From IMG/VR virus record IMGVR_UViG_3300027749_000239, positions 1-39,244 of that record: a stretch of DNA of 39,244 nucleotides. One strand, 5' to 3'. Position numbers and translations under genes: made by a program. Source of the stretch: a virus. The notes beneath the pieces were generated by a model. The model did not search any database. It was not told where the DNA came from and was given only the letters and a program-made list of their open reading frames with translations. How positions within the stretch are numbered: position 1 is the stretch's first letter; every line of letters begins with the position of its first letter. Below are positions 3,478 through 24,103 of this stretch, piece by piece.

Positions 3478-3819
3478 ATGACTATTCCAAAAACTATAAA
3501 ACCTAAAACTACAAAGTCAAAAATATCTAGTACAAAAGAAACTGAAATTAAAGCGCCTTCTTTAATGCCAATTAGCTTTAAAGATTTTAGTAAAGACCCA
3601 GTTAAAGGTCTATTATTTATTGTTTTAATTGCAATTGGATATTTATATGTAGATGGTAAAATGAATTATACTAGTCAGATAGAGAATCAAAGCAAAAAAA
3701 TACAAATTTTAGAAGTACGAGTAGAAAATTTAAGCAATCAGCTTAGAAAGTCTGATAGTACTTTAGCAGGTGCAGAATCTAAAATAGCAGTATTACAACA
3801 ACTAGGAAAAATAAAGTAG
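3478..3819 (+). CDS. Single-TM coiled-coil membrane protein (lysis region)
   Basis: A 113-residue protein with a Lys/Thr-rich N-terminal tail of about 45 residues, one clear membrane segment (G-L-L-F-I-V-L-I-A-I-G-Y-L-Y-V), then a heptad-like coil (I-E-N-Q-S-K-K-I-Q-I-L-E-V-R-V-E-N-L). The basic tail before the TM suggests N-in, C-out topology. Position just before a spanin-like pair and an endolysin suggests a role in lysis, for example an inner-membrane spanin or holin accessory, but the family is not recognised. It has its own promoter-like element and is joined to the next gene by TAG-TAT-ATG. Confidence 0.65.
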   Translation: MTIPKTIKPKTTKSKISSTKETEIKAPSLMPISFKDFSKDPVKGLLFIVLIAIGYLYVDGKMNYTSQIENQSKKIQILEVRVENLSNQLRKSDSTLAGAESKIAVLQQLGKIK

Positions 3820-3822
3820 TAT

Positions 3823-4233
3823 ATGAAACAAAAAATAATAATGATATCGACAAGTATTGCAGCTATTATTTTTATGGGTCGTAATCAAATAATGTCTTTT
3901 AAAGATAAGTACATATCCCATAAAGATTCTTCCATAATAAAATCTGCTACAATTGAAACACCCTATATTGATACTATATTAGAAAAAAGTAAAAAAAGTG
4001 TAATATCAGTTGGTGAAAAGAGTATAAAGAGTGATTCAATGATAATTACAAAAGTTGAAAAAACCGCAAAAAATATAGAAGTTTTACACACAGAAGTTAA
4101 AGTCTTAAAAAAGGAAAACAATGAACTTAAAGCAAAACTTGGTGATACTGTTGTTAATGTTAATAAACATTTCAACCTACTGCCAGTCAATGAACCCGAC
4201 AACGGTAAATCTGGTTCCACAGACGAGCAATAG
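3823..4233 (+). CDS. Inner-membrane spanin-like protein (N-terminal anchor plus coiled coil)
   Basis: A 136-residue protein with an N-terminal hydrophobic segment (I-I-M-I-S-T-S-I-A-A-I-I-F-M) and a long periplasmic-type coiled coil (V-L-H-T-E-V-K-V-L-K-K-E-N-N-E-L-K-A-K-L). The last 113 bases overlap the next gene out of frame, an arrangement reminiscent of Rz/Rz1 spanin pairs. Family similarity is not recognised, so the i-spanin reading rests on topology, overlap and position before the endolysin. A structural or signalling membrane protein is the alternative. Confidence 0.6.
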   Translation: MKQKIIMISTSIAAIIFMGRNQIMSFKDKYISHKDSSIIKSATIETPYIDTILEKSKKSVISVGEKSIKSDSMIITKVEKTAKNIEVLHTEVKVLKKENNELKAKLGDTVVNVNKHFNLLPVNEPDNGKSGSTDEQ

Positions 4234-7339: not shown

Positions 7340-8047
7340 ATGATAAAATTAACAAGCTTTTTAAATGAAGGACCTGAAGATTTTGGTGCATATCGCAGAA
7401 TTGTAATTACATCTGATAAAGTAAAACAAATAGAGTCAGAGATTAAAAAATTCATGGATCGTCCAGAAACAAAAGAGAAATTCCCAGTAAAATCTTCTTT
7501 TAAACCAGGAATAAAACCAGAGATGGCAGTCATTGATGTAGAAGGCAAAGGTGCGTCTGTAATAGCAATTAAAGCAACAGATATAGCAAAGAAGCTGGAT
7601 AAAACTGCTATTATAAAAGTAAGGAGTGAAAGAAAATTAAAAGAATTTACTCCAAATCCAGCTGAAACCCCAGAAATATACTATGGAAATGAAAAGAAAA
7701 AGTATATCAAACAACCATCATTAGATAACCAAGATATGAATGCAATAAAGTCTACTCATCCAATAGCAGAAGAATATTGCTCAGAGTGTGATAATGAAAT
7801 GGTTGATGGATATTGTTCACAGTGTGGAGAAGAAAAAAGTGATAATGTTTGGGGACAACCCTCTGAAGATCATGAATCTACTATGGCAAAAGGTGAACTT
7901 AAAGATCTTATATCAAATGCATCAAAATTATATAGTATGATAGAACCAGGAACAGAACTTCCAGGTTGGGTATCGGCTTATATTACTTTAGCGAGCGATT
8001 ATATGCACAGTGTTGCTGAATATGCTCAAGAGATTGCTTCACATTAA
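7340..8047 (+). CDS. Candidate internal virion protein with zinc ribbon and capsid-targeting-like N-terminus
   Basis: A 235-residue protein starting M-I-K-L-T-S-F-L-N-E-G, with L-N-E as a predicted gp21-type cleavage site. Residues ~145-168 hold a zinc ribbon, Y-C-S-E-C-D-N-E-M-V-D-G-Y-C-S-Q-C-G-E-E (two C-x2-C knuckles). The C-terminal domain (M-A-K-G-E-L-K-D-L-I, then M-I-E-P-G-T-E-L-P-G-W-V, then Y-I-T-L-A-S-D-Y-M-H) is a helical module I recognise from many T4-like virion or prohead-associated proteins of unknown function. It has its own promoter-like element, so late expression with other head genes is likely. Role as packaged cargo is inference. Confidence 0.75.
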   Translation: MIKLTSFLNEGPEDFGAYRRIVITSDKVKQIESEIKKFMDRPETKEKFPVKSSFKPGIKPEMAVIDVEGKGASVIAIKATDIAKKLDKTAIIKVRSERKLKEFTPNPAETPEIYYGNEKKKYIKQPSLDNQDMNAIKSTHPIAEEYCSECDNEMVDGYCSQCGEEKSDNVWGQPSEDHESTMAKGELKDLISNASKLYSMIEPGTELPGWVSAYITLASDYMHSVAEYAQEIASH

Positions 8048-8056
8048 AAATAAAAT

Positions 8057-10687
8057 ATGAAAAAGTTATTGTTATTATTTATCTTATTATTTTCTTTTAC
8101 ATTTGGAAATGCTCAAATTGTAACAGGAAACCTCTTTCTTCAAGGAAAGTATTTGGAAATTGGAGCACAGCAAAATGCTTCTTTAGGATCTGGGGTGGCA
8201 GCCCCGACAGGCTATCATCCGAGAAACTCTGGCACAGTATTTCTTTGTGGCGGATCGTCTCCTAACTTTTTAGCTTCAGTATACGATTATGGTTTAGATG
8301 GATGGACAGTAGGCACACCGGCATATATGGGAGATTATACACTTCCAGGTTCTCCATGGGAAGGCTGGGGTATAGAAGTAAATGGTACTCGAGAATGGGC
8401 ATATTCAACAAATTGTAACCTCAGTGGCGGATTAACTCCGGCAATTGGTAACTGGACTTCATATACAAACACAGGTGGACAGGTTTTAGGTTATTGGAAT
8501 GGATCTTTTTTGGGTGGAAATTTACTAGTTAATCAAGAATATAGAATCGACACACTATCATCTGCATTAGTCGTAACAGTAAAATTAAAAAATGTTGGTA
8601 GCACTGTACTGAATAACGTGTATTATTTACGTTCATGTGATCCTGATAACAGTGTGCCATGGGGTGGGTCATTTACAACAAACAACATTATACGTTTTCA
8701 AAATGATTTTTATCATAGAGTAATGGTATCAGCAACTTCTACAGGACCTGTTGGAAGTATAGGGACGCCAGCAACTGTATTGAGTTTAGGAACTAAAGAT
8801 TCTCGAGCAAAGTGCGTAATATTTACTTCTTGGCCATTGTCAACAACAGCAACATATTCAGGCATTTGGGCAGGGACTTCGACTGGAATTGGTACTAGTT
8901 ATTATACAGTAAACACTGGCACAGTCAATGACATTGCAATAGGATTAGTGTTTAATTTATGTAATATACTTCCAGGAGATAGTACAATGTGTTCATATGC
9001 TTATATCTATAATAGTGCATCTTCAATGGTAGCTTCTATAGATACTGCATTTCCAGAACCCGTTTTAACAGCAAATGGAATTGTTTTAGATAGTGTAGAT
9101 ACAATTACTGCTTGTTTAGGAGGCACAACAGTCAATTTAAATGTATTACATGGTTCAGATAAAAGTTGGTCTTGGAGTGGATGGACATGGTCTCCTAGCA
9201 CTGGATTAAGTTCAACAACTGGCACTTCAACAGTATTGAATTATGCTGGAATTTCTAGCATTACAACATATACTATTACAGGAAACGACACAACACATTG
9301 CAGACAATTGCACAAACAATTTCTGTTAACAGTTATTCCAGTTAGCGCTGCAACACCTATAACACGAGATACTTTTTATTGTCAGAATACAATTGCGGGG
9401 CTTCCAACATTAAATGTAACTTACACTGGTACATTGACTTGGTATACAACCCCAACAGGTGGTATTGGAACAACAACGACACCAATAATATCAACTACGA
9501 CATCTGGAGTAATTACTTATTACGTAACACAGACTATTGCTGGTTGTGAAAGTGCCAGAGTTCCTTTAAAAGTGACTATTAATCCTGCATATAATATCAA
9601 TTTACCTGTTGCAATTTGTAATGGTACATCGTATAATTATAATGGTAGTGTTTATAATGCAGCTGGCGCATACGTAAATCATTTTAGTACAATTTTGGGT
9701 TGTGACTCGACAATGAATATTGTTGTTACGATATTATCAACTGATACTATACGAATATTAGATTCTATTTGTCAAGGAGATGTATATTCATTCTCTGGAC
9801 ACACATACAATACTAATGGAACATATACCCTAAGTTACACCAATGTATCCGGATGTGATTCAACAATGATTTTAACACTTATAGTCAAACCAATACCACA
9901 AGCTGACATTAAAAATCTTACAAGTTCTAATATATGCGTAGGCGATTCAATTAGAATAGTTTCTATTAATCAAGCATATGGGCCATTAACGTATCATTGG
10001 ACATTTGATTTACCATCAACAATACTAAATAATGTGTATCCATCCGGACCTTACACCATTGGATATTACACTCCAGGTTCTTATAACATTTACTTGTATG
10101 TTACTAATGATTTTTGCCAATCAAGTTTAGATAGTATACAAATTCAAGTGGAAAAGTATCCAGATGCTTCTATTAAAGAGTCTGGGTATGACGTTTGTAT
10201 AGGTGATAAAGTCTTTTTCCAACCAGAAAATCCAGAGCAAGGAATAATATACTATTGGCAACCTGTATATTATTTTGAACAAGAAAATGCTAGTGGACAG
10301 TCAAATATTTGGGGAACTGTAGATATTAGTAGAACAGTTATATTGCATGCTTTAAGTAAATTTGGATGCATATCAGCAGATTCAGTTAAAGTGTTAGCAC
10401 ATAGCTGTTGTACATTTGTAATTCCTAATTCATTTACTCCTAATGGCGATGGATTAAATGATTTGTATAAACCAATCTATACTGGCAATGGATTCAATGT
10501 TCATGTATTCAGTATATTTGATCGTTGGGGTAATGAAGTGTATTCTTCTAAATTATTAGCAACTAAAGGTTGGGATGGAATGTATAAAAATGTTCCTTGT
10601 GAATTAGGAGTTTATTTTTGGTATATTGATTATGAGTGTGAAGGTATTGAATATAAGAAAAAAGGAGATGTAACTTTAATTAGATAG
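8057..10687 (+). CDS. Secreted multi-domain surface protein with T9SS type B (CHU_C/gliding) C-terminal sorting domain
   Basis: An 876-residue protein with a clear signal peptide (M-K-K-L-L-L-L-F-I-L-L-F-S-F-T-F-G-N-A-Q). Residues ~20-340 form a Gly/Ser/Thr/aromatic-rich beta domain. Two related repeats follow (I-C-N-G-T-S-Y-N-Y-N-G ... G-C-D-S-T-M and I-C-Q-G-D-V-Y-S-F-S-G ... G-C-D-S-T-M), then PKD/Ig-like segments. Residues ~785-876 are a gliding-motility C-terminal domain: F-V-I-P-N-S-F-T-P-N-G-D-G-L-N-D, F-D-R-W-G-N-E-V-Y, G-W-D-G-M-Y, G-V-Y-F-W-Y-I. In Bacteroidota this domain directs type IX secretion and surface attachment. The same A/T-rich start context and flanking virion genes argue that it is truly phage-borne, probably acquired from a host. 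It may be a conversion protein, a surface modifier or an adhesin. Confidence 0.88.
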   Translation: MKKLLLLFILLFSFTFGNAQIVTGNLFLQGKYLEIGAQQNASLGSGVAAPTGYHPRNSGTVFLCGGSSPNFLASVYDYGLDGWTVGTPAYMGDYTLPGSPWEGWGIEVNGTREWAYSTNCNLSGGLTPAIGNWTSYTNTGGQVLGYWNGSFLGGNLLVNQEYRIDTLSSALVVTVKLKNVGSTVLNNVYYLRSCDPDNSVPWGGSFTTNNIIRFQNDFYHRVMVSATSTGPVGSIGTPATVLSLGTKDSRAKCVIFTSWPLSTTATYSGIWAGTSTGIGTSYYTVNTGTVNDIAIGLVFNLCNILPGDSTMCSYAYIYNSASSMVASIDTAFPEPVLTANGIVLDSVDTITACLGGTTVNLNVLHGSDKSWSWSGWTWSPSTGLSSTTGTSTVLNYAGISSITTYTITGNDTTHCRQLHKQFLLTVIPVSAATPITRDTFYCQNTIAGLPTLNVTYTGTLTWYTTPTGGIGTTTTPIISTTTSGVITYYVTQTIAGCESARVPLKVTINPAYNINLPVAICNGTSYNYNGSVYNAAGAYVNHFSTILGCDSTMNIVVTILSTDTIRILDSICQGDVYSFSGHTYNTNGTYTLSYTNVSGCDSTMILTLIVKPIPQADIKNLTSSNICVGDSIRIVSINQAYGPLTYHWTFDLPSTILNNVYPSGPYTIGYYTPGSYNIYLYVTNDFCQSSLDSIQIQVEKYPDASIKESGYDVCIGDKVFFQPENPEQGIIYYWQPVYYFEQENASGQSNIWGTVDISRTVILHALSKFGCISADSVKVLAHSCCTFVIPNSFTPNGDGLNDLYKPIYTGNGFNVHVFSIFDRWGNEVYSSKLLATKGWDGMYKNVPCELGVYFWYIDYECEGIEYKKKGDVTLIR

Positions 10688-10689
10688 TG

Positions 10690-10698
10690 ATATTTATA
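10690..10698 (+). promoter_or_regulatory. Putative late promoter element (ATATTTATA), nearly abutting its start codon
   Basis: GATATTTATATAAAATG: only four bases separate the core from the ATG at 10703. If this is a -10 element, the transcript would start at or within a base or two of the ATG and be leaderless. Confidence 0.55.
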
Positions 10699-10702
10699 TA
10701 AA

Positions 10703-11164
10703 ATGATAAAATTAACAGACATACTAAAGAAAATACTCAAAGAAGCTGGAAATGAACAACCAGTTAATCCAGAATTTGAGGAAAATCCAATGGAATATAT
10801 CCTTAAAAGATATAAAAGACTTAATGAGAATTTAGTTAAACTCATGGGAGATAGTTTTAAGGAATATCTTGGCGGTGTTTTTATTATGTCTGGTAAACCT
10901 ACAACATTTAAAATACTTCTTAAAAATGGTCAGTATTTCTATATGACCTTTATGGGAAAAGCATATGAAGCTACTGTACAAGGTAAACGCTATTATTTAA
11001 TGAATATAGGTGATATACAAAGAGCTACAGTGGCTATATCTAGACTTCAAAGATATGGAGCTAAAACTTCTGCGCAGGGACCAGAAAGTGAAGAAGGACC
11101 TAGATCAGAAGAATTACCAACAGAGAAAGAAGAAAAAGAAGAAAAACCCAAAGAAACAGCATAA
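10703..11164 (+). CDS. Candidate internal virion protein with capsid-targeting-like N-terminus
   Basis: A 153-residue protein starting M-I-K-L-T-D-I-L-K-K-I-L-K-E-A, with L-K-E as a possible prohead-protease site. The middle is predicted alpha/beta (F-K-I-L-L-K-N-G-Q-Y-F-Y-M-T-F-M-G-K-A-Y) and the C-terminus is a disordered acidic/lysine tail. No family is recognised. Its promoter-like element sits almost on the start codon. It lies just upstream of the terminase, where T4 carries its small terminase gene. It does not look like a small terminase, so that role is not proposed. An A/T hairpin (11201-11225) lies in the 104-base gap downstream. Confidence 0.65.
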   Translation: MIKLTDILKKILKEAGNEQPVNPEFEENPMEYILKRYKRLNENLVKLMGDSFKEYLGGVFIMSGKPTTFKILLKNGQYFYMTFMGKAYEATVQGKRYYLMNIGDIQRATVAISRLQRYGAKTSAQGPESEEGPRSEELPTEKEEKEEKPKETA

Positions 11165-11246
11165 CTCAAAACAAATACTTTATAAAGTCAATATAAAAGG
11201 TTATAATGTTATCAAAGCATTATAAATATACTCAATAAAATGTGAT

Positions 11247-11255
11247 ATATTTATA
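11247..11255 (+). promoter_or_regulatory. Putative late promoter element (ATATTTATA) for terminase
   Basis: GATATATTTATAAACA; the core ends 13 bases before the ATG at 11269. A forward TATAAATA, the T4 late consensus, also occurs upstream at 11221-11228. Confidence 0.6.
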
Positions 11256-11268
11256 AACAAAAGTTTTT

Positions 11269-11868
11269 ATGCCCGAATTAAATAATAAACAGGCTACAAT
11301 AAAAGATAGGATACGCGAAGAATTTTTGAAATGCGCCACAGATCCCGTATACTTTATGAAGAAGTATTACATGATCCAGCATCCACAAAGAGGACGAATG
11401 CTATTTGATTTGTATCCATTTCAAGAATCAATGGTAAAGGTCTTTTCAGGAGACCAGAATATATTAATAAATAAGTCTAGACAGCTAGGTATATCAACAT
11501 TGGTATCTGCATATAGTCTATGGCTTATGATATTCTATAAAGATAAAAACGTACTGGTCATTGCAACAAAGCAAGAGACAGCCAAGAACATGGTTACAAA
11601 AGTACGATTTGCGTATGATAATTTACCCACTTGGTTAAAGATCGGTGCAACAGAAGATAATAGACTTAGCTTAAGACTTACAAACGGTTCACAAATAAAG
11701 GCAGTATCTGGAGCAAGTGACTCAGCTCGTTCAGAAGCAGTATCTCTACTAGTAATGGACGAATGTATTACCGGGGATACTGAAGTAACAGTAAAAAATA
11801 AAATTACTGGAAAAATAGAAAAAGTTTCTATAGATAAATTAAAAAAAATGCTAATTGATGAAACATAA
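11269..11868 (+). CDS. Terminase large subunit, N-terminal half fused to split-intein N fragment
   Basis: A 199-residue protein. Residues 1-165 are the N-terminal part of the gp17-type packaging ATPase: I-N-K-S-R-Q-L-G-I-S-T (Walker A, residues ~68-77) and S-L-L-V-M-D-E (Walker B and catalytic Glu165). The next residue, Cys166, opens an intein: C-I-T-G-D-T-E-V-T-V matches intein block A, and the fragment ends 34 residues later at a stop codon. The rest of the ATPase, starting C-A-F-I-D, is encoded at 12589-14016. Protein trans-splicing between the two products should rebuild an active motor. Alone, this half lacks the coupling motif and nuclease. The split falls right beside the catalytic residues, as is usual for inteins. 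Confidence 0.92.
   Translation: MPELNNKQATIKDRIREEFLKCATDPVYFMKKYYMIQHPQRGRMLFDLYPFQESMVKVFSGDQNILINKSRQLGISTLVSAYSLWLMIFYKDKNVLVIATKQETAKNMVTKVRFAYDNLPTWLKIGATEDNRLSLRLTNGSQIKAVSGASDSARSEAVSLLVMDECITGDTEVTVKNKITGKIEKVSIDKLKKMLIDET
11764..11865 (+). other. Split intein N fragment (IntN, 34 residues)
   Basis: Begins at nucleophile Cys166 of the upstream terminase half and contains block A (C-x2-G-D-T-x-V) followed by K-I-E-K-V-S-I-D-K-L. No block B is present; block B lies in the C fragment, so the split point is between blocks A and B. This is the atypical arrangement known from AceL-TerL, whose N fragment is 25 residues as I recall. Confidence 0.88.
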
Positions 11869-11871
11869 GCG

Positions 11872-11880
11872 ATATTTATT
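11872..11880 (+). promoter_or_regulatory. Putative late promoter element (ATATTTATT) for the homing endonuclease
   Basis: GATATTTATTGAAA in the 23-base gap between the terminase N-half and the endonuclease gene; the core ends 11 bases before the ATG at 11892. Confidence 0.55.
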
Positions 11881-11891
11881 GAAAAAGCAAA

Positions 11892-12602
11892 ATGAATGAA
11901 CAAAAAAAACATTCTTGGAACTGGAAAGAGCCTATAGAAAAAATATGTAATGGATGCGGAAAGTCATATTTAACTAAAAAAATAAATAAAAAATATTGCA
12001 CACAACCATGCTGGACATCAAACAATAATAGAGTAGATAGTCCAGAGGTTAGAAAAAAAAGAGTCGATTCAGTAAGGAAAACTACATCAACAAAAGAATA
12101 CAAAGAAAAAATAAAAAATAGTCCGAGAATTAAAGAGGCTAATAGACAATCATCAATTAGAATGAAAAAGCTAATAGCAGAAGGAAAATTTACTCCGTGT
12201 ATTACAAATAGTTGGACAAGATGGAAATCTTTTGTAGAAATAGACGGAGTAATTAAAAAATTTAGAAGTTCTTGGGAAGCGGTATTTTATTTATTGAATC
12301 CACATTTAGAGTATGAAAAAAGAAGAATTCAATATAAAAATGATGAATCATACAGGAATTATATAGTAGATTTTGAAGATTCAAATAATAAAATATTATA
12401 TGAAATAAAGCCTATTAATCTAAAAGATAATTATAAAAATACTATAAAGATTAAAGCTGCTCAACAATGGTGTAAAGATAATCAATATGAATATAGAATA
12501 ATATCAGACGAATGGTTTTTTGAAAATGCAAATAAAATAGATTATGAAAAAAATCCGCAATTAAGATTATTAATGAAAAATTTTATAAGTGATAAAAAAT
12601 AA
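11892..12602 (+). CDS. Free-standing homing endonuclease, PD-(D/E)XK-like, inside the fractured terminase
   Basis: A 236-residue Lys-rich protein. Residues ~16-40 carry a zinc-finger-like C-N-G-C-G ... Y-C-T-Q-P-C-W. Residues ~55-105 are basic and helical, like NUMOD-type DNA-binding segments. The C-terminal ~110 residues contain R-S-S-W-E-A-V-F-Y, then Y-I-V-D-F-E-D, then I-L-Y-E-I-K-P: Glu, Asp and E-x-K in the order of a PD-(D/E)XK or Vsr-like nuclease. Position between two intein-bearing gene halves fits the fractured-gene arrangement, in which a free-standing nuclease cuts the intein-less allele and drives spread. Membership of the EDxHD family is uncertain. Its last 14 bases overlap the next gene, which starts on GTG. 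Confidence 0.82.
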   Translation: MNEQKKHSWNWKEPIEKICNGCGKSYLTKKINKKYCTQPCWTSNNNRVDSPEVRKKRVDSVRKTTSTKEYKEKIKNSPRIKEANRQSSIRMKKLIAEGKFTPCITNSWTRWKSFVEIDGVIKKFRSSWEAVFYLLNPHLEYEKRRIQYKNDESYRNYIVDFEDSNNKILYEIKPINLKDNYKNTIKIKAAQQWCKDNQYEYRIISDEWFFENANKIDYEKNPQLRLLMKNFISDKK

Positions 12603-12906
12603 TAAATACGAGGTTTTAACCCCAAGCGGGTTTTGTGATTTTGAAGGAATATCATCAAAACAGAGTTTTGTTATTTTTACTATTAAATTTTCTAACGGTA
12701 ATTATATAAGATGTACTGATGGACATGAATTGAAATTTCCAAATGGGGAATTTTTAGAGGCGGGTTTAATACAAAAAGGAGATGTTTTATTTGGAAATTT
12801 AGAAGTAATTGATATATCTTATGTAGAAGAAGAAGAGGGGGTCCATGATCTTATTAATGTTAAAGAAAATAATGAATATTATACTAATGATGTAGTTAGT
12901 CATAAT
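12589..12906 (+). other. Split intein C fragment (IntC, 106 residues)
   Basis: Contains L-T-P-S-G-F-C-D-F-E-G, block B with R-C-T-D-G-H-E-L-K, then block F/G ending in Y-Y-T-N-D-V-V-S-H-N before Cys+1. The opening resembles what I recall of the AceL-TerL C fragment (I-L-S-P-N-G-F ... N-G-V-V-S-H-N-C), which is 104 residues. Confidence 0.88.
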
Positions 12907-14016
12907 TGCGCTTTTATTGATAATGCAGAAGAACTTTTTGGTTCGGCTCAGCAAACTTTGGCAACTGGTGGTAAATGTATAGCTCTATCTACTCCTAATG
13001 GTGTTGGTAATTGGTTTCATAAGACATATGTAAGAGCACAAAAGAAAGAAAATAGCTTTTTACCAGTATCTCTTCCATGGACAGTACATCCAGAAAGAAG
13101 TCAACCTTGGAGAGATAAACAAGATCAAGACTTGGGAATAAGAATGGCAGCGCAAGAGTGTGATTGCGATTTCTCAAGTTCTGGTAATACAGTAATCATC
13201 CCAGATATATTAACATGGTATGAAGAAAATGTTATTGCAGAACCAATTGAAAGAAGAGGTTTAGATAAGTCAATGTGGGTATGGGAATATCCAAGTCCAT
13301 TAAAAACATATTTATTATGTGCAGACGTAGCAAGAGGCGATGGAGCTGACTATTCTGCATTTCATATTATCGATGTAGATACATTGACACAAGTAGCAGA
13401 ATATCAATCTCAATGTGATACCAGAGAATTTGCAAAAACAATATTAGCAGCAGCTTTTGAATATAATAATGCTCTAGTGGCAGTGGAAAATGCAAATATA
13501 GGCTGGGACGTTTTACAGACTTTAGTAGAGAGTGGATATCAGAATTTACATTATTCACATAGAACAGATTTTAGTTTAGATCAAGAAAAAAGATTGGAAA
13601 GATATGGAGCAACAGATTCTCTAGTTCCAGGATTTACAATGTCATCAGCATCAAGACCCCTAATAATAGAGAGAATGAGAGATTTTGTAGAGACAAAGCA
13701 AGTCAAAATAAGATCACTTAGACTTTTAGAAGAGTTAAGAGTATTTATATGGAAAAACTCAAAGCCTCAAGCAATGCAAGGATATAATGATGATCTTGTA
13801 ATGTCTTTTGCGATATCTATGTATATGAGAGATTCTTCTATTCGTTTTAGAAGAACTGCTGAAAGTTTGACATACGCAGCTTTAGATGCAATAAAAAAAA
13901 CCGGAGATTCTCCAGTTTACAACACAAGTAATTTTATGAGTAATAATCCTTACCAGATGGAAATCTCTACAGCGAATGGAAATTCAATAGAAGATATATC
14001 TTGGTTATTGGGATAA
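12589..14016 (+). CDS. Split-intein C fragment fused to terminase large subunit C-terminal half
   Basis: A 475-residue product. Residues 1-106 are the intein C fragment, ending V-V-S-H-N; Cys107 is the +1 extein residue. The remaining 369 residues complete the packaging motor: C-A-F-I-D, the coupling motif I-A-L-S-T-P-N-G, and an RNase H-like nuclease with Asp246 (C-A-D-V-A-R-G-D), Glu300 (V-A-V-E-N-A-N-I-G) and Asp401/402 (Y-N-D-D-L-V-M-S). The spliced protein would be 534 residues, somewhat shorter than T4 gp17. An in-frame TAA (12586-12588) directly precedes the GTG at 12589, so GTG is the best start; the sequence then runs M-I-K-N-N-K-Y-E-V-L. Confidence 0.92.
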   Translation: MIKNNKYEVLTPSGFCDFEGISSKQSFVIFTIKFSNGNYIRCTDGHELKFPNGEFLEAGLIQKGDVLFGNLEVIDISYVEEEEGVHDLINVKENNEYYTNDVVSHNCAFIDNAEELFGSAQQTLATGGKCIALSTPNGVGNWFHKTYVRAQKKENSFLPVSLPWTVHPERSQPWRDKQDQDLGIRMAAQECDCDFSSSGNTVIIPDILTWYEENVIAEPIERRGLDKSMWVWEYPSPLKTYLLCADVARGDGADYSAFHIIDVDTLTQVAEYQSQCDTREFAKTILAAAFEYNNALVAVENANIGWDVLQTLVESGYQNLHYSHRTDFSLDQEKRLERYGATDSLVPGFTMSSASRPLIIERMRDFVETKQVKIRSLRLLEELRVFIWKNSKPQAMQGYNDDLVMSFAISMYMRDSSIRFRRTAESLTYAALDAIKKTGDSPVYNTSNFMSNNPYQMEISTANGNSIEDISWLLG

Positions 14017-14027
14017 AAATATAAAAA

Positions 14028-15932
14028 ATGGCAGAAATACAACAAAATTTATTTTCAACGCTGCGCAGACTATTTAGCACAGATGTTATAATACGCAATG
14101 ACGGAGGCAATATGTTATCAGTCATGGATACAGATAATATTCAATCTAATGGAGTTATTCAGACTAATTCTCTTATTGATAGATTCCATAAAGTTTATAC
14201 AACATCTACTGCCTATGGTGTCAATCTGAATTTAGCAATGAATTATCAGTCAGCAAGGGTACAAATCTATGCTGATTATGATTCTATGGATACAGATGCA
14301 ATCATAGCGTCTGCATTAGATATTATAGCCGATGAATCAACACTAAAAAATGATCAAGGTCAAGTTTTAACAATAAGGTCTTCAGATGAGAATATACAAA
14401 AAATCCTAGAAGATCTTTTCTATTCAGTTCTTAATATTGAATTTAATCTATGGTCTTGGATACGTAATATGTGTAAGTACGGGGACTTTTACTTAAAAAT
14501 GGAGATCTCTGACAAATTTGGCGTATATAATGTAATTCCATTCTCAGCATATAATATAGTAAGACAAGAGGGATACAATCCTAATAATCCAAATGAAGTG
14601 AGATTTAAGTTTGATCCTAATGCAGCTTTAGCAGCAACTTCAGGATATACTTCAGCATTTAATAATCAAGATCCTGGAGTATGGTTTGATAATTATGAAA
14701 TGGCACATTTTAGGCTCATTGGGGACGTTAATTATCTTCCTTATGGTAGATCATACCTAGAGCCAGCAAGAAAGCTATTTAAGCAGTATACGCTCATTGA
14801 AGATGCAATGCTGATCCATAGAATTACTCGTGCTCCAGAAAGAAGAATATTTTATACGAATGTAGGAGCAATTCCTCCAAATGAAGTAGAAAATTATGTT
14901 CAAAGAATGATCAATAAGATGAAAAAAACTCCATTGATCGATCCAACCACTGGACAATACAATCTTAAATATAATCAACAAAATCTACTTGAAGACTTTA
15001 TAGTACCAGTAAGAGGTAATGATACATCTACGAGAATTGATACTGCTAAAGGACTTGAATATAATGCAATAGAAGACGTTGTATACTTTAGAGAAAAGCT
15101 ATTTGCTGCATTAAAAATACCAAAAGCTTTCATGGGATACGAGAAAGATCTTACTGGTAAAGCTACATTGGCTGCAGAAGATATTAGATTTGCTCGCACA
15201 GTTGAAAGATTGCAGAGGATTATAGTATCTGAGCTTAAGAAAATAGCATTAGTACACCTTTACGCAAATGGATATACTGATGAGGGTATGGCAAACTTTA
15301 GTCTAAGCTTAACAAACCCATCTATAATATACGATCAGGAGAGAATAGCAATGTTCAAAGAAAAGATTGATCTTGCAACTCAAGCAGTAGAAGGAGCAAT
15401 ACTACCAAAAGAGTATATATGGGAAAATATATTCCATTTATCTCCAGATTCATTCGGTGAGTTAGAGGATATGATTATTGAAGATCAAAAAAGAAAGTTC
15501 AGATATGATCAAATAGAGACAGAAGGAAATGATCCACTTGAATCTGGTACAGCGCATGGTACTCCATCTCAAATAGCAGGATTGTATGGTGGTAAACCAA
15601 CTCTAGATGTTCCAGCTGGGTATGATGAAACAAATCCAAATGAACCTGTAAAAATGCCAGGAAGACCTGAAAAATATAAGTCAATTATCGGCACTGACAA
15701 AAGTAAATTTGGCAGAGATCCAATAGGAAGAAAAGGAATGGGATCTAGTATGGAGCGTGGAGAAGATAAAGTAGAATATAAAGGGGGACCATTAAGTTTT
15801 GAAAGCACAAAAGCAGTATATCTCCAAAATATAAATGGATTGCAAAAGATGTTTTCTGGTAAAAAAGTAACGTTATTTGAAAATCAAAATGAAACTGGTG
15901 GTCTTTTAGATGAAAGAAACATTAAAGAGTAA
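14028..15932 (+). CDS. 20: Portal protein (gp20-like)
   Basis: A 634-residue protein that should form the dodecameric portal ring at the head vertex through which DNA is packaged. Recognisable gp20-type blocks include Y-A-D-Y-D-S-M-D-T-D-A-I-I-A-S-A-L-D-I-I-A-D-E, then R-I-T-R-A-P-E-R-R-I-F-Y-T-N-V-G, and K-I-P-K-A-F-M-G-Y-E. These match T4-like portals from marine phages. T4 gp20 is 524 residues; the extra length is mostly a Gly/Pro/charged C-terminal tail (~residues 500-634) that looks disordered. The gene follows the terminase by 11 bases without a promoter-like element, so the two are probably co-transcribed. Confidence 0.93.
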   Translation: MAEIQQNLFSTLRRLFSTDVIIRNDGGNMLSVMDTDNIQSNGVIQTNSLIDRFHKVYTTSTAYGVNLNLAMNYQSARVQIYADYDSMDTDAIIASALDIIADESTLKNDQGQVLTIRSSDENIQKILEDLFYSVLNIEFNLWSWIRNMCKYGDFYLKMEISDKFGVYNVIPFSAYNIVRQEGYNPNNPNEVRFKFDPNAALAATSGYTSAFNNQDPGVWFDNYEMAHFRLIGDVNYLPYGRSYLEPARKLFKQYTLIEDAMLIHRITRAPERRIFYTNVGAIPPNEVENYVQRMINKMKKTPLIDPTTGQYNLKYNQQNLLEDFIVPVRGNDTSTRIDTAKGLEYNAIEDVVYFREKLFAALKIPKAFMGYEKDLTGKATLAAEDIRFARTVERLQRIIVSELKKIALVHLYANGYTDEGMANFSLSLTNPSIIYDQERIAMFKEKIDLATQAVEGAILPKEYIWENIFHLSPDSFGELEDMIIEDQKRKFRYDQIETEGNDPLESGTAHGTPSQIAGLYGGKPTLDVPAGYDETNPNEPVKMPGRPEKYKSIIGTDKSKFGRDPIGRKGMGSSMERGEDKVEYKGGPLSFESTKAVYLQNINGLQKMFSGKKVTLFENQNETGGLLDERNIKE

Positions 15933-15953
15933 ACATACGACGCATAATTAGAT

Positions 15954-15962
15954 ATATTTATA
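15954..15962 (+). promoter_or_regulatory. Putative late promoter element (ATATTTATA), overlapping a T4-type TATAAATA
   Basis: GATATATTTATAAATAG; the core ends 19 bases before the ATG at 15982. A forward TATAAATA lies at 15959-15966, so either orientation of the motif could be read here. Confidence 0.62.
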
Positions 15963-15981
15963 AATAGAATCGATCCAATAC

Positions 15982-16839
15982 ATGGCATCATTAAAACACT
16001 CAAAATATAGAAATTCTGGTATACTTTTTGAATTGCTAGTTAGACAAACGACTGCAGATTTTATTGCTAATAAAGAATCAAAAGCAGTAAAGATACTCAA
16101 AAAGTATTTTACAAATACAGAACTAGGCAAGGAATATGCTCTTTATAATAGCATAGTTACAAGCCCAAGACTTACAGAATCAAAAGCAGAGATGCTAATT
16201 TCAACGATTCTAGAGCAGTATAGCAAACTTGACAAAGAATCAATACAAAAATTAAAATATAATCTTATAAGAGAAATCAAATCTGGTTATGATATAGATG
16301 ATTTTTTCAAAGCTAAAGTAGATAATTACAAAACATTAGCAGCAATATACAATACGCTTGAATCTCAGAATACAAAAGAGGTAGATATTAAGCAAGTCTT
16401 TTTAAATAAGGTAGTAGTACTTGAGCATGTAACAAAATCAAAGCTTGAAGATATGCCAGCTTCGAAAAGCATTATGGAAGAATTAATGCAAGAAGACAAA
16501 GAAATAAGATTACTAACATACAAAATACTAGTAGAGAAATTTAACCAAAAGTATGATGGAATGTCAGTAAGACAAAAAGATATTCTAAATACCTATATTA
16601 CTAGCATATCAAATACAACAAAACTTAATTCTTACGTAAACCAGCAACTTACAGAAATAAAATCAGATATACTAAAGCTTTCAAAAAAAGTAACAGATCC
16701 TGTAATAAAAATAAAGCTAGATGAAGTTGTAAAGCTAGTTCAACCTATAAAAGAAGGAAAAAGAGTAAAAGACGAAACAATATCAGGTCTATTACAATAT
16801 GTAGATCTTCTAGAAGAACTTAAAAAAATAGACAAATGA
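15982..16839 (+). CDS. Conserved T4-like head-region protein of unknown function
   Basis: A 285-residue, almost wholly helical, Lys/Glu-rich protein opening M-A-S-L-K-H-S-K-Y-R-N-S-G-I-L-F-E-L-L-V-R-Q. I recall similar openings in uncharacterised proteins next to portal genes of environmental T4-like phages. It contains long helix-forming stretches and a C-terminal L-L-Q-Y-V-D-L-L-E-E-L-K-K-I. Position between portal and prohead protease suggests a prohead-core or scaffold-associated role, but no experimental function is known to me. It has its own promoter-like element, and its TGA overlaps the next start as ATGA. Confidence 0.72.
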   Translation: MASLKHSKYRNSGILFELLVRQTTADFIANKESKAVKILKKYFTNTELGKEYALYNSIVTSPRLTESKAEMLISTILEQYSKLDKESIQKLKYNLIREIKSGYDIDDFFKAKVDNYKTLAAIYNTLESQNTKEVDIKQVFLNKVVVLEHVTKSKLEDMPASKSIMEELMQEDKEIRLLTYKILVEKFNQKYDGMSVRQKDILNTYITSISNTTKLNSYVNQQLTEIKSDILKLSKKVTDPVIKIKLDEVVKLVQPIKEGKRVKDETISGLLQYVDLLEELKKIDK

Positions 16840-17777
16840 GTGATATGCAGTCAATGGTAGATAAGATGCGCAGTGATGAACATCAACCTAGCCAAGAAGA
16901 ACAAGATATGGCAGAGCAGCTCATAGATATGTTACTAGCAGCTGTAGAATCTGGAAAGTTAACTGCAGAACAAGCTAAGGATATTATTCGTAAAGCTCCA
17001 AATACAATGGATGAAATGTCTGCAACTGGGGGTGGAGTGGGATCTGGAGGAGCAATTTTTACACCTGGATCTGGAATGGCATATGCACAAGCATTAGATA
17101 AGCCAAAGAAAAAGATGAAAGAAGGTCTAACATCATCTACTCCAGGTATAGACGTTACAAGCAGATATTCAACTTCTAAAAAAAGTGCTATAACTGGAGA
17201 TGGACAAGATGTAGAAGATGGTGATGATGTATACTATAGAGGATATCCTATGGTAATACAAAAAGTATATCAAAAAGGTGGAAGTATATATCTAAAAGCG
17301 TATAGCTCTGAAGAAGACACAACAACCGATGATATAGCTAGTAGATTTAAATCAAACCCACCATCAACAAAAGAATCAAAAGATAAAGAATCAAAGCTTG
17401 CAGCAGGTAAACTCAAAAAGAATTATGCTGTTGATAAGTTTGGATTCAAGCCGGCCCCTTCAATACCCAATCGCCCATCCACAGGAGGATTTCAATACAA
17501 AGACTTATGGGCAGAATCTCATACTCTAGATGAAAATTATTCTAGATTTAGAAAAGCTGTGCGTGAAAGAGATAATACAGGACAATATCATACCGGAGTA
17601 GGCATTGTAAGAAAAAAACTTGCTGAGGTAGATAAAATGATGGAATATCTTGCAACCCTAAAAAGTGATTTATCAACTGCTGGAATGGTAAATGAAACTT
17701 CTCACACAAAGAAATCTTTAGAGAAGATGACAGAAATGATAAAAAACATTTACGCTAAACATAAAAAACTAAAATAG
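16836..17777 (+). CDS. Hypothetical prohead-region protein
   Basis: A 313-residue protein, translationally coupled to its upstream neighbour by a four-base overlap. The N-terminal ~60 residues form an acidic helical segment (M-A-E-Q-L-I-D-M-L-L-A-A-V-E-S-G-K-L-T). A Gly-rich linker (A-T-G-G-G-V-G-S-G-G-A-I-F) follows, then a short strand-rich domain (D-V-Y-Y-R-G-Y-P-M-V-I-Q-K-V-Y-Q-K-G-G-S). A C-terminal helical module carries T-L-D-E-N-Y-S-R-F-R-K-A-V and T-G-Q-Y-H-T-G-V-G-I-V-R-K-K-L. That last module seems conserved among T4-like head-region proteins. A scaffold or internal-core role is inferred from position only. Confidence 0.7.
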   Translation: MSDMQSMVDKMRSDEHQPSQEEQDMAEQLIDMLLAAVESGKLTAEQAKDIIRKAPNTMDEMSATGGGVGSGGAIFTPGSGMAYAQALDKPKKKMKEGLTSSTPGIDVTSRYSTSKKSAITGDGQDVEDGDDVYYRGYPMVIQKVYQKGGSIYLKAYSSEEDTTTDDIASRFKSNPPSTKESKDKESKLAAGKLKKNYAVDKFGFKPAPSIPNRPSTGGFQYKDLWAESHTLDENYSRFRKAVRERDNTGQYHTGVGIVRKKLAEVDKMMEYLATLKSDLSTAGMVNETSHTKKSLEKMTEMIKNIYAKHKKLK

Positions 17778-17780
17778 TAT

Positions 17781-17909
17781 ATGGCAAAACCGGGTACTAC
17801 AGGCAGTGGAAATAAAACCACATTTGGGGCAAGAAAATTAGGAGTAGCAAAAAAATCATATAATAAACATACTCCAAGACCAAAAAAATATAGAGGACAA
17901 GGTCGATAG
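17781..17909 (+). CDS. Small basic protein (42 residues)
   Basis: A short Lys/Arg/Gly-rich protein, M-A-K-P-G-T-T-G-S-G-N-K-T-T-F-G-A-R-K-L and onward, ending in K-Y-R-G-Q-G-R. It begins in the junction TAG-TAT-ATG, which is identical to those at 3819/3823 and 38613/38617; this supports it as a real gene despite its size. Its charge suggests binding to DNA or to acidic scaffold proteins in the prohead. The family is not recognised with certainty. A promoter-like element starts four bases after its stop codon. Confidence 0.7.
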   Translation: MAKPGTTGSGNKTTFGARKLGVAKKSYNKHTPRPKKYRGQGR

Positions 17910-17912
17910 TCA

Positions 17913-17921
17913 ATATTTATT
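17913..17921 (+). promoter_or_regulatory. Putative late promoter element (ATATTTATT)
   Basis: CAATATTTATTACTAAA; the core ends 17 bases before the ATG at 17939. Confidence 0.55.
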
Positions 17922-17938
17922 ACTAAAAATACAAAAAC

Positions 17939-19408
17939 ATGACAGTAGCAAACCTATTTGCGAAACATAGAGCTGGAGAAGTATCTAAAGAGAAGTTTCT
18001 TTATGAAGTTCGTAAAGACTTCCAGCTTCCATATATAAGCAATCTGACTTCATATGATGATGCAATCAAAATATTAAAGCAAAAATCTGTGATTAAAGAA
18101 GCAGAATCTATAGATAAATCTATAGATACTAGTGGTAAATATAATGTAGTGCTAACAAATGGAGAAAAGTATAATAATGTTACTTTTATATCACGCGACT
18201 CTTTTAAGACTGAGGACGGAAAATCAATGATGCATCAGCATATTAAGTCATCAAAGGTATCTGGAGGATTGGAAGAAGCAGAAAGCTCACAAGTAAAGGT
18301 GGGAGATACATACGCATATTCAATGGCTCCTGGAGATACTTTGACTATTAATTCTATAAATGGAGATGATATGAAAGTAACAACCCTACAAAAAGGAAAG
18401 AAATATAGTGGAGAAGAGACTAAGTCTTGGGTAGAAATGGCAATTAGACAGGGTCTATTAAAACTAAAAGAAGCTAAATCTCCAAAAAAAATTATAAAAG
18501 AGCAAGAAGATCTACACCTTACAATAGATAGATTAAATCCTATTTTAGTAAATAAAGCTGTAAATGTAGAACTTGCAAAGCTTCCAGAAATAAACGCAGC
18601 AGTATACCAAAAGACTCTCGAGAAAGTAGTAAATAAACTCAAGAAAGATCCAAGGTGCTATGATGATGTATTTGTGGCAAATGCAAAGCAGATTAATAAA
18701 GAAGATGAAAAAAGAAAAATGGTGCCAGTAAAAAAGGAACTTAAAGATCCGCACCATCAGATGAAGTCTCCAAAAGGTCTAGAAAAGCATAAGTCAAATA
18801 CAAAAGCTTCGAAGACTGAAAATAAAAAAGGAAAGCCAAAAGGAGTAAAGGAAATGTCAAGTCATGCAAAAGGTCATAAAGGCATGAAGCAGATGAAACA
18901 GCCTGAAAAAAAGCACAGGGTAATGGAGGCTATAGAGACTTTTTTAAAGAAAAAGCTAACTGAGGATAGTCATCATGTATACGGAATAGGCATGGGAGTA
19001 GAAACGCCAGATGGTCCTGGAACTGTAAAAGCAATAGTAGGATCAACGCTTACTGTAGAATTAGGAGAAGGCAAACATAAGGACTATCAGATGAATATTA
19101 TCAACCACCACTCTGGACATCATGACAGCGTTCCAAATGAGCTTGATAATGCAAAGATAAAGAAATTTGACGCAAAAGCAAAACCCGGAGTAAAAACGAT
19201 GGATGAGAAAAAGGACGATGTGATCAAAAAAGTAATGGAGTTCCTTAAAAAGAAAAAGAAGACAAGAGAAGTAGATGAAGTCGCCACAGCTAAAACTACA
19301 GACTCTGCTCATAATCAAGCAGTGCAAAATAAATTAAATAAAGTTCAAGGATCAGCAAAAGCAGATCTGCAAAAAGCTTTTAATTCAGGACAAGCAATAG
19401 ATCTATAA
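17939..19408 (+). CDS. Large charged prohead-core candidate
   Basis: A 489-residue protein rich in Lys, Glu and His. The N-terminal ~55 residues (F-A-K-H-R-A-G-E-V-S-K-E-K-F-L-Y-E-V-R-K-D) form a helical module. Residues ~65-110 and ~355-380 contain short barrel-like strands (Y-N-V-V-L-T-N-G-E-K-Y; V-E-T-P-D-G-P-G-T-V-K-A-I-V-G). Residues ~265-310 are a very basic, His-rich linker. Several x-x-E sites (V-I-K-E, L-K-E, V-M-E) could be cut by the prohead protease. It lies directly before the gp21 gene and is joined to it by TAA-T-ATG. An internal-core function is likely but not shown. Confidence 0.68.
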   Translation: MTVANLFAKHRAGEVSKEKFLYEVRKDFQLPYISNLTSYDDAIKILKQKSVIKEAESIDKSIDTSGKYNVVLTNGEKYNNVTFISRDSFKTEDGKSMMHQHIKSSKVSGGLEEAESSQVKVGDTYAYSMAPGDTLTINSINGDDMKVTTLQKGKKYSGEETKSWVEMAIRQGLLKLKEAKSPKKIIKEQEDLHLTIDRLNPILVNKAVNVELAKLPEINAAVYQKTLEKVVNKLKKDPRCYDDVFVANAKQINKEDEKRKMVPVKKELKDPHHQMKSPKGLEKHKSNTKASKTENKKGKPKGVKEMSSHAKGHKGMKQMKQPEKKHRVMEAIETFLKKKLTEDSHHVYGIGMGVETPDGPGTVKAIVGSTLTVELGEGKHKDYQMNIINHHSGHHDSVPNELDNAKIKKFDAKAKPGVKTMDEKKDDVIKKVMEFLKKKKKTREVDEVATAKTTDSAHNQAVQNKLNKVQGSAKADLQKAFNSGQAIDL

Positions 19409-23539: not shown

Positions 23540-24103
23540 ATGGCACATGTTATTTATTTATTTACATTTCCAAATGGGAAACATTATGTAGGAAGAACTA
23601 AGAATTTTAAAAACAGATTAGAAAGTCATAAATCAAAAGCTAATAAAAAGAAAAATTTTGTTATTCATAAAGCGCTTAATAAATATGGTTGGGATAATGT
23701 TGAAAAATTAATAATAGATACAGCAGATACTTTAGAAGAGGCCATAGCAAAAGAATATGAATATATTGTTAAATATGATTGTATAAGAAATGGATATAAT
23801 TTAACTATAGAAACTAAGCATGGGGGAGATATATGGACTGATAGGAGAGATACCCAAGAATTTAAAGATTTTCAAGAAAGGATGAGAACATCTACTTTAG
23901 GAGAAAAGAATGGTATGTATGGAAAAACTCAAAAAGAAGAATCAAAGGAGAAGATGAAAGAAAAAGCGAAAGGTAGATTTAGTCTTCCTTGGTTTATAGA
24001 AAGATATGGAGAAGAAATAGGCACTCAAAAATATGAAGATAGACGTGCATTCCTTAAATCCAGAAATTTAAAACATTCCCCAGATGGCAAGTTTACTAAA
24101 TAA
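23540..24103 (+). CDS. GIY-YIG homing endonuclease with NUMOD3-like DNA-binding region
   Basis: A 187-residue free-standing homing endonuclease placed between the capsid gene terminator and the next head/neck genes. The catalytic domain starts at once: V-I-Y-L-F-T-F-P-N-G-K-H-Y-V-G-R-T, with Arg in N-R-L-E-S-H-K and the metal-binding Glu in A-K-E-Y-E-Y-I. Residues ~115-140 contain G-E-K-N-G-M-Y-G-K-T-Q, typical of NUMOD3, and the C-terminus (W-F-I-E-R-Y-G-E-E-I-G-T-Q-K-Y-E) is also common in such enzymes. It should cut related phage genomes lacking the insertion. It is intact, with its own promoter-like element, and appears less G+C-rich than the adjacent capsid gene. Confidence 0.92.
   Translation: MAHVIYLFTFPNGKHYVGRTKNFKNRLESHKSKANKKKNFVIHKALNKYGWDNVEKLIIDTADTLEEAIAKEYEYIVKYDCIRNGYNLTIETKHGGDIWTDRRDTQEFKDFQERMRTSTLGEKNGMYGKTQKEESKEKMKEKAKGRFSLPWFIERYGEEIGTQKYEDRRAFLKSRNLKHSPDGKFTK

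What the first reader, a model, noticed from the sequence alone, without database searches (positions are those of the whole stretch)
11269..14016. Fractured terminase gene rebuilt by an atypically split intein
Seen: the packaging ATPase stops right after its catalytic D-E with an intein block A, and a second gene resumes with block B, blocks F/G, H-N and then Cys of the ATPase. The split lies between blocks A and B (IntN 34, IntC 106 residues) rather than at the usual site after block B. Known: AceL-TerL from a lake metagenome has the same host gene and a similarly short IntN, and fractured genes with split inteins are described from metagenomes. Inference: this is another member with a longer IntN, and packaging depends on trans-splicing.
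Basis: partly seen in the sequence, partly recalled or inferred. Interest (0 to 1): 0.92.

Follow-up and report, generated by a model that had tools for sequence, protein, structure and literature searches.

The report
Mobile split intein interrupting phage terminase
This phage makes its DNA-packaging motor as two separate proteins that an unusually cut self-splicing element should stitch together, with a DNA-cutting gene between the halves that probably spreads the insertion; the arrangement is of a known kind, but near-identical phages with and without it, including common E. coli phages, make it easy to test.

Summary
The reading is right, but it misses the middle gene. TerL is cut directly after the Walker B Asp-Glu. 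The first gene ends in a 34-aa IntN. The third starts with a 106-aa IntC and resumes TerL at Cys+1; the exteins add up to 534 aa. Independently, both halves match the crystallised 'Cat' intein (6dsl chains A and B), built from AceL-TerL and GOS-TerL. The 34-aa IntN is ordinary: relatives at this site have 28-43 aa and GOS-TerL has 37. Between the halves lies a 236-aa PD-(D/E)XK, TnsA-like nuclease gene, so this is a classic 'fractured gene': TerL-N-IntN / homing endonuclease / IntC-TerL-C.

A contig 98.5-99.1% identical to the window over about 9 kb lacks exactly the 1143-bp cassette and has one continuous TerL. This excludes an assembly error and shows the cassette moves as a unit. Isolated E. 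coli phages carry the same element: kaaroe has it, while RB49, with 99.6% identical TerL DNA, does not. Campylobacter fletcherviruses keep the two TerL halves about 25 kb apart on opposite strands, which only trans-splicing readily explains. Contiguous inteins of 132-140 aa occur at the same site.

Verdict: a new member of a known kind. Splicing and homing are inferred, not shown.

The parts
11269..11763 (+). TerL N-extein, 165 codons: Walker A-like SRQLGIST (11476-11499), Walker B LLVMDE (11746-11763)
   Evidence: T4 gp17 structures 9e-22; Pfam Terminase_6N; phrog_5989
11764..11865 (+). IntN, 34 aa, starting at Cys1 and ending at a TAA stop (11866-11868)
   Evidence: Profile without the window 54.7 bits vs best shuffle 13.4; profile of relatives hits CatN 6dsl_A
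11892..12602 (+). Free-standing homing-endonuclease-like gene, 236 aa: N-terminal Cys-pair (zinc-like) region, then PD-(D/E)XK core E129, E142, D160, E171-x-K173 (D160 to K173 = 12369-12410)
   Evidence: phrog_15427 endonuclease 3e-26; invariant columns in 47 relatives; AlphaFold pLDDT 91; TnsA best fold hit
12589..12906 (+). IntC, 106 aa counting the GTG start: TDGH block B at 12715-12726, His-Asn at 12901-12906
   Evidence: 6dsl_B CatC 3e-15 / 2e-27; model fold hit 6dsl TM 0.83; an ATG in relative L031 aligns with the GTG
12907..14016 (+). TerL C-extein, 369 codons plus stop, beginning at the Cys+1 nucleophile: rest of the ATPase and the nuclease domain
   Evidence: phrog_2 terminase 9e-26; 97% identical to L032 TerL
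11764..12906 (+). The 1143-bp cassette (IntN + nuclease gene + IntC) that is absent from the near-identical genome L032
   Evidence: blastn 98.53% over 7749-11762 and 99.10% over 12910-18013, no gaps

Best explanation
This is a 'fractured' terminase large-subunit gene. A 1143-bp cassette made of a naturally and atypically split class 1 intein (IntN 34 aa, IntC 106 aa) with a free-standing PD-(D/E)XK endonuclease gene between the halves sits directly after the Walker B Asp-Glu codons of TerL. The three ORFs are in tandem and the last two overlap. The two TerL precursors are expected to associate through IntN and IntC and splice in trans (Cys1 thioester, transfer to Cys+1, Asn106 cyclisation) to give a normal 534-aa TerL. 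The endonuclease probably cuts TerL alleles that lack the cassette, so that repair copies the cassette in (homing). Shown by computation: the gene layout, intein homology and catalytic residues, nuclease family, precise empty alleles, recurrence in other phages. Inferred: trans-splicing activity, cleavage and homing.
For: Both intein halves independently hit the crystallised atypically split Cat intein, with catalytic residues conserved. Contiguous 132-140-aa inteins occupy the same site in SRB7757 and viral contigs, equal to 34+106. The near-identical empty allele L032 lacks exactly the cassette, and 3 of the 19 differing TerL codons are the three at the junction. In this lineage the empty alleles read DE-Ala-AF and occupied ones DE|Cys...Cys-AF. 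The same three-gene layout occurs in L031, L048 and cultured phages HY03, PspYZU05, TG1 and SEA1, and with IntN fused to the nuclease in Thanatos-2, TB34 and kaaroe. RB49 versus kaaroe and ECO07P4 versus HY03 are empty/occupied pairs. In about 39 Campylobacter phage records the TerL halves are far apart; in F341 they are about 25 kb apart on opposite strands, with no nuclease between. Between the window and L031, dN/dS is about 0.32 (IntN), 0.24 (IntC) and 0.19 (nuclease), so all are under constraint.
Against: No splicing, cleavage or homing was measured. The direction of the L032 difference (gain or loss) is not resolved. dS values are near saturation. The nuclease fold match to TnsA is weak in E-value (0.05) although its probability is 0.99.
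Confidence: 0.9

Rival explanations
1. Genes-in-pieces without splicing: a homing endonuclease split TerL and the two fragments work as a non-covalent complex, as reported for NrdA of phage Aeh1.
For: A free-standing nuclease gene does lie in the gap, and such a case is cited for ribonucleotide reductase.
Against: Intein blocks A, B, F and G are intact and under purifying selection. The +1 residue is Cys in occupied alleles and Ala in nearly all empty alleles of the lineage. The split lies exactly where contiguous inteins occur.
Confidence: 0.05
2. Sequencing or assembly artefact: a continuous TerL, or a continuous intein, broken by errors or a chimeric join.
For: The window is a 39-kb metagenome virus record without reads.
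Against: Flanks are co-linear and gap-free with L032 over 10 kb. The same layout is found in independent contigs and in isolated phage genomes.
Confidence: 0.01
3. Decayed element: the intein or nuclease is inactive and the phage is defective or depends on another TerL.
For: Some relatives carry only a nuclease remnant or none (L202-L205, L206, L212).
Against: No frameshift or loss of catalytic residues in the window. dN/dS is well below 1 for all parts. No second TerL match in the 39-kb window.
Confidence: 0.05
4. RNA-level splicing: a group I or II intron with its endonuclease removes 11764-12906 from the mRNA.
For: Phage terminase genes with introns are known (ICP1).
Against: No Rfam match in 10600-14200 at E up to 1. 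The insert begins and ends with conserved intein protein blocks.
Confidence: 0.01

Closest known systems
AceL-TerL / GOS-TerL / Cat atypically split inteins (PDB 6dsl; PMC11766414)
   Same: Same host gene, short IntN and long IntC, Cys1 chemistry as in AceL and Cat, both halves alignable to CatN and CatC
   Different: IntN 34 and IntC 106 aa instead of 25/104 (AceL), 37/115 with Ser1 (GOS), 30/104 (Cat); about 38% identity of the IntC model to CatC
Fractured genes with split inteins and free-standing homing endonucleases (Dassa et al. 2009; cited in PMC10448857, paper not held)
   Same: A conserved enzyme gene cut in two by a split intein with an endonuclease gene in between
   Different: The nuclease is a TnsA / T7 endonuclease I-like PD-(D/E)XK protein with an E-x-K motif, not a sequence match to the Vsr-like I-Bth0305I family that I recall from that paper
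Cultured phages with the same TerL cassette: Escherichia HY03 and kaaroe, Yersinia TG1 and phiR1-RT, Pseudomonas PspYZU05, Shewanella Thanatos-2
   Same: Same insertion site after the Walker B Glu, homologous IntN, nuclease and IntC
   Different: IntN 41-43 aa in HY03-type; IntN fused in frame to the nuclease in kaaroe, TB34 and Thanatos-2
VidaL, gp41-1 and other split inteins
   Same: Intein (Hint) fold
   Different: More distant by profile (gp41-1 6e-14, VidaL 1e-7)

Membership tests
Atypically split TerL inteins (AceL-TerL/GOS-TerL/Cat) | Host gene is TerL, interrupted within the ATPase domain | tested here: met
Atypically split TerL inteins (AceL-TerL/GOS-TerL/Cat) | Split between blocks A and B, IntN about 25-37 aa and IntC about 104-115 aa | tested here: met
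   34/106 aa; ranges from PMC11766414
Atypically split TerL inteins (AceL-TerL/GOS-TerL/Cat) | Both halves homologous to the solved Cat halves | tested here: met
   6dsl_A 0.003, 6dsl_B 2e-27; fold TM 0.83
Atypically split TerL inteins (AceL-TerL/GOS-TerL/Cat) | Cys1, TxxH, penultimate His, Asn and Cys+1 present | tested here: met
Atypically split TerL inteins (AceL-TerL/GOS-TerL/Cat) | Splices in trans | not testable with these tools
   Needs co-expression of the halves
Atypically split TerL inteins (AceL-TerL/GOS-TerL/Cat) | Same insertion codon as native AceL-TerL | not tested
   The native extein sequence is not in the held sources
Fractured genes (Dassa 2009) | Split intein with a free-standing endonuclease gene between the halves | tested here: met
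Fractured genes (Dassa 2009) | Vsr-like endonuclease (in about half of the original loci, from memory) | tested here: not met
   Best match TnsA-like; I-Bth0305I 3r3p only a weak fold hit. Not a feature of all the original loci, so not decisive for membership
Homing element | Occupied and precisely empty alleles at one site in otherwise near-identical genomes | tested here: met
   window/L032, kaaroe/RB49, HY03/ECO07P4
Homing element | Nuclease cuts the empty allele and the cassette is co-inherited in crosses | not testable with these tools
   Bench experiment
Group I/II intron | Intron RNA structure in the insert | tested here: not met
   No Rfam hit

The most novel reading that the evidence does not exclude
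The cassette is caught while homing: a split intein plus nuclease that still segregates as present/absent at one TerL codon in phage populations and in laboratory E. coli phages. Insertion of the nuclease gene into a loop of a contiguous 140-aa intein created the atypical A/B split, after which the nuclease can be swapped, fused, lost, or the halves scattered across the genome.
Probability: 0.5. Interest if true: 0.65.

Novelty: new member of a known kind. Interest (0 to 1): 0.5.

Why it matters
The arrangement itself is known from metagenomes. The value is that occupied/empty allele pairs at about 99% identity exist both here and in E. coli phages (kaaroe against RB49, both of species Krischvirus RB49; kaaroe was isolated on E. 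coli K-12 MG1655). Trans-splicing of an essential packaging ATPase and homing of a split-intein cassette can therefore be tested in ordinary phage crosses. The set of relatives also covers contiguous, split with nuclease, nuclease fused to IntN, split without nuclease, and dispersed halves, which is a nearly complete series for how split inteins arise.

Tried and rejected
A Pfam scan of single proteins alone was too weak for the intein (16 bits). The 34-aa IntN as a single sequence finds nothing in the PDB, so a profile was needed. The nuclease as a single sequence has no PDB match and its profile gives only sub-threshold hits. A GTDB genome scan with IntC-TerL-C found no relative, so no host is assigned. 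Rfam found no intron. The promoter scan was at chance level; three terminator-like hits against 0.9 expected were not pursued. Gain versus loss of the cassette in the L032/window pair could not be polarised: occupied alleles are scattered among empty ones in both extein trees, which suggests repeated transfer but does not prove it.

Full report
Observation. Three tandem + strand ORFs lie at the stated place: 11269-11868 (199 aa), 11892-12602 (236 aa) and 12589-14016 (475 aa, GTG start). The first matches T4 gp17 up to the Walker B Asp-Glu and then carries 34 residues beginning CITGDTEV. The third begins with 106 residues ending SHN and continues as terminase from Cys. C1 is at 11764 and Cys+1 at 12907; the insert is 1143 bp. 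The exteins add up to 534 aa.

Is it an intein? Profiles built without the window score its IntN at 54.7 bits and its IntC at 137.4 bits; the best of the scored shuffled sequences reach 13.4 and 14.3. IntC matches CatC of PDB 6dsl at 3e-15 as a single sequence and 2e-27 as a profile. The profile of the IntN fragments has CatN, the partner chain of 6dsl, as its best hit (0.003). The AlphaFold model of IntC (pLDDT 86) has the same entry, 'intein (Cat) with atypical split site', as best fold match (E 2.8e-8, TM 0.83). The TxxH of block B, the block F Asp, and His-Asn|Cys are conserved in the alignment of 30 relatives, with a few exceptions; a few relatives lack the penultimate His.

The middle gene. 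It belongs to phrog_15427 'endonuclease' (3e-26). Thirty-nine of 47 relatives match Pfam Tn7_TnsA-like_N and five match Phage_endo_I. E142, D160, E171 and K173 are invariant and E129 nearly so. The model has pLDDT 91 and its best fold match is TnsA (probability 0.99, E 0.05), ahead of I-Bth0305I. This is a PD-(D/E)XK nuclease behind a Cys-pair N-terminal region. Its 3' end overlaps the IntC start by 14 bp; in L031 the corresponding overlap is ATGA, which suggests translational coupling.

Empty alleles. Contig L032 is 98.53% identical over 7749-11762 and 99.10% over 12910-18013 without gaps, and lacks exactly the cassette. Its TerL is one 534-aa ORF. Of 535 codons (stop included) 19 differ, and three of them are the consecutive junction codons (GAC/GAT, GAA/GAG, TGC/GCG), which looks like a short co-converted tract. 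Most uninterrupted TerL loci read DE-Ala-AF (85 of 93 loci, partly redundant); interrupted ones mostly carry Cys. The change of Ala to Cys supplies the nucleophile and stays as a one-residue scar. Gain or loss was not polarised; occupied alleles (window, L031, L048) are scattered among empty ones.

Relatives. 91 isolated-phage records have an IntC match; most carry it at this same TerL site, and some at two other TerL sites. HY03, PspYZU05, TG1 and SEA1 have three genes. Thanatos-2, TB34 and kaaroe have IntN fused in frame with the nuclease. SRB7757 and several viral contigs have a contiguous intein of 132-140 aa, the same as 34+106. L206 and L212 are split with only a short gap. Other nuclease families also occur in the slot: DUF7487, GIY-YIG and T5orf172. 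In Campylobacter phage F341 the N-half is at 108152-108865 on the minus strand and the C-half at 1489-2817 on the plus strand of a circular 131,680-bp genome; about 39 records share the N-half. Only assembly of two separate proteins can give a TerL there.

Testable pairs. Kaaroe and RB49 TerL are 99.6% identical at the DNA level, with a 1288-bp insert in kaaroe. HY03 and ECO07P4 are 99.1-99.9% identical, with a 1020-bp insert in HY03. In these T4-type phages the empty allele already has Cys at the +1 position. Phage kvi, of the same species as kaaroe, instead has a contiguous intein of about 330 aa at Walker A and reads DE-Ala at the Walker B site.

Constraint. Against L031, dN/dS is about 0.03 for TerL, 0.32 for IntN, 0.24 for IntC and 0.19 for the nuclease (dS is near saturation).

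Mechanism. Best supported: trans-splicing by the class 1 route and homing by the nuclease. The gene layout, homology, catalytic residues, empty alleles and constraint are shown. Splicing, cleavage and homing are inferred. The atypical split is best explained by the nuclease gene having entered a loop between blocks A and B of a contiguous intein; the opposite order (a split intein fused later) is not excluded.

Known or new. AceL-TerL (25/104), GOS-TerL (37/115, Ser1) and Cat-TerL (30/104) are described in PMC11766414. Fractured genes are from Dassa et al. 2009, cited in PMC10448857; that paper could not be read and its details here are from memory. An intein and an intron with homing endonuclease in a Campylobacter phage TerL were noted in PMC3322345. 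The window is a new member of a known kind. I found no held paper on the scattered TerL halves of fletcherviruses or on the kaaroe/RB49 pair; most subscription papers are not held.

Noticed in passing
window 23540-24103 (+): A GIY-YIG homing-endonuclease gene (Pfam GIY-YIG 1e-10, phrog_314 homing endonuclease 8e-30) directly after the major head protein gene.
   Followed up: partly
L008, L017 (Campylobacter phage F341): TerL split-intein halves lie about 25 kb apart on opposite strands with no nuclease between, a pattern shared by about 39 Campylobacter phage records; apparently a fixed, obligate trans-spliced terminase.
   Followed up: partly
L246 (Escherichia phage kvi): Contiguous intein of about 330 aa at Walker A of TerL; this phage has Ala instead of Cys at the Walker B insertion codon, which would deny the split intein its nucleophile.
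   Followed up: partly
L114-L119, L192: TerL appears to carry two separate inteins: the Walker B one with a nuclease and a second one further downstream.
   Followed up: no
L019, L021, L018: A third TerL insertion site (Serratia 92A1, Vibrio K476 and VP-1) has split inteins with GIY-YIG-type nucleases instead; the cut again falls early in the intein.
   Followed up: partly
L012 (Campylobacter CP20), L013 (Proteus PM2): Relatives of the same nuclease sit between the halves of PhoH and of a UvsW-like helicase.
   Followed up: no
L024 (Campylobacter CP21) 3498-3803 and 3909-4229: Two IntC-like stretches in tandem before TerL-C.
   Followed up: no
window 8057-10687 (+): A secreted-looking 876-aa protein whose end resembles Bacteroidota gliding/T9SS C-terminal domains (from memory); with the Flavobacterium phage immuto as the closest cultured TerL, this hints at a Bacteroidota host.
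   Followed up: no
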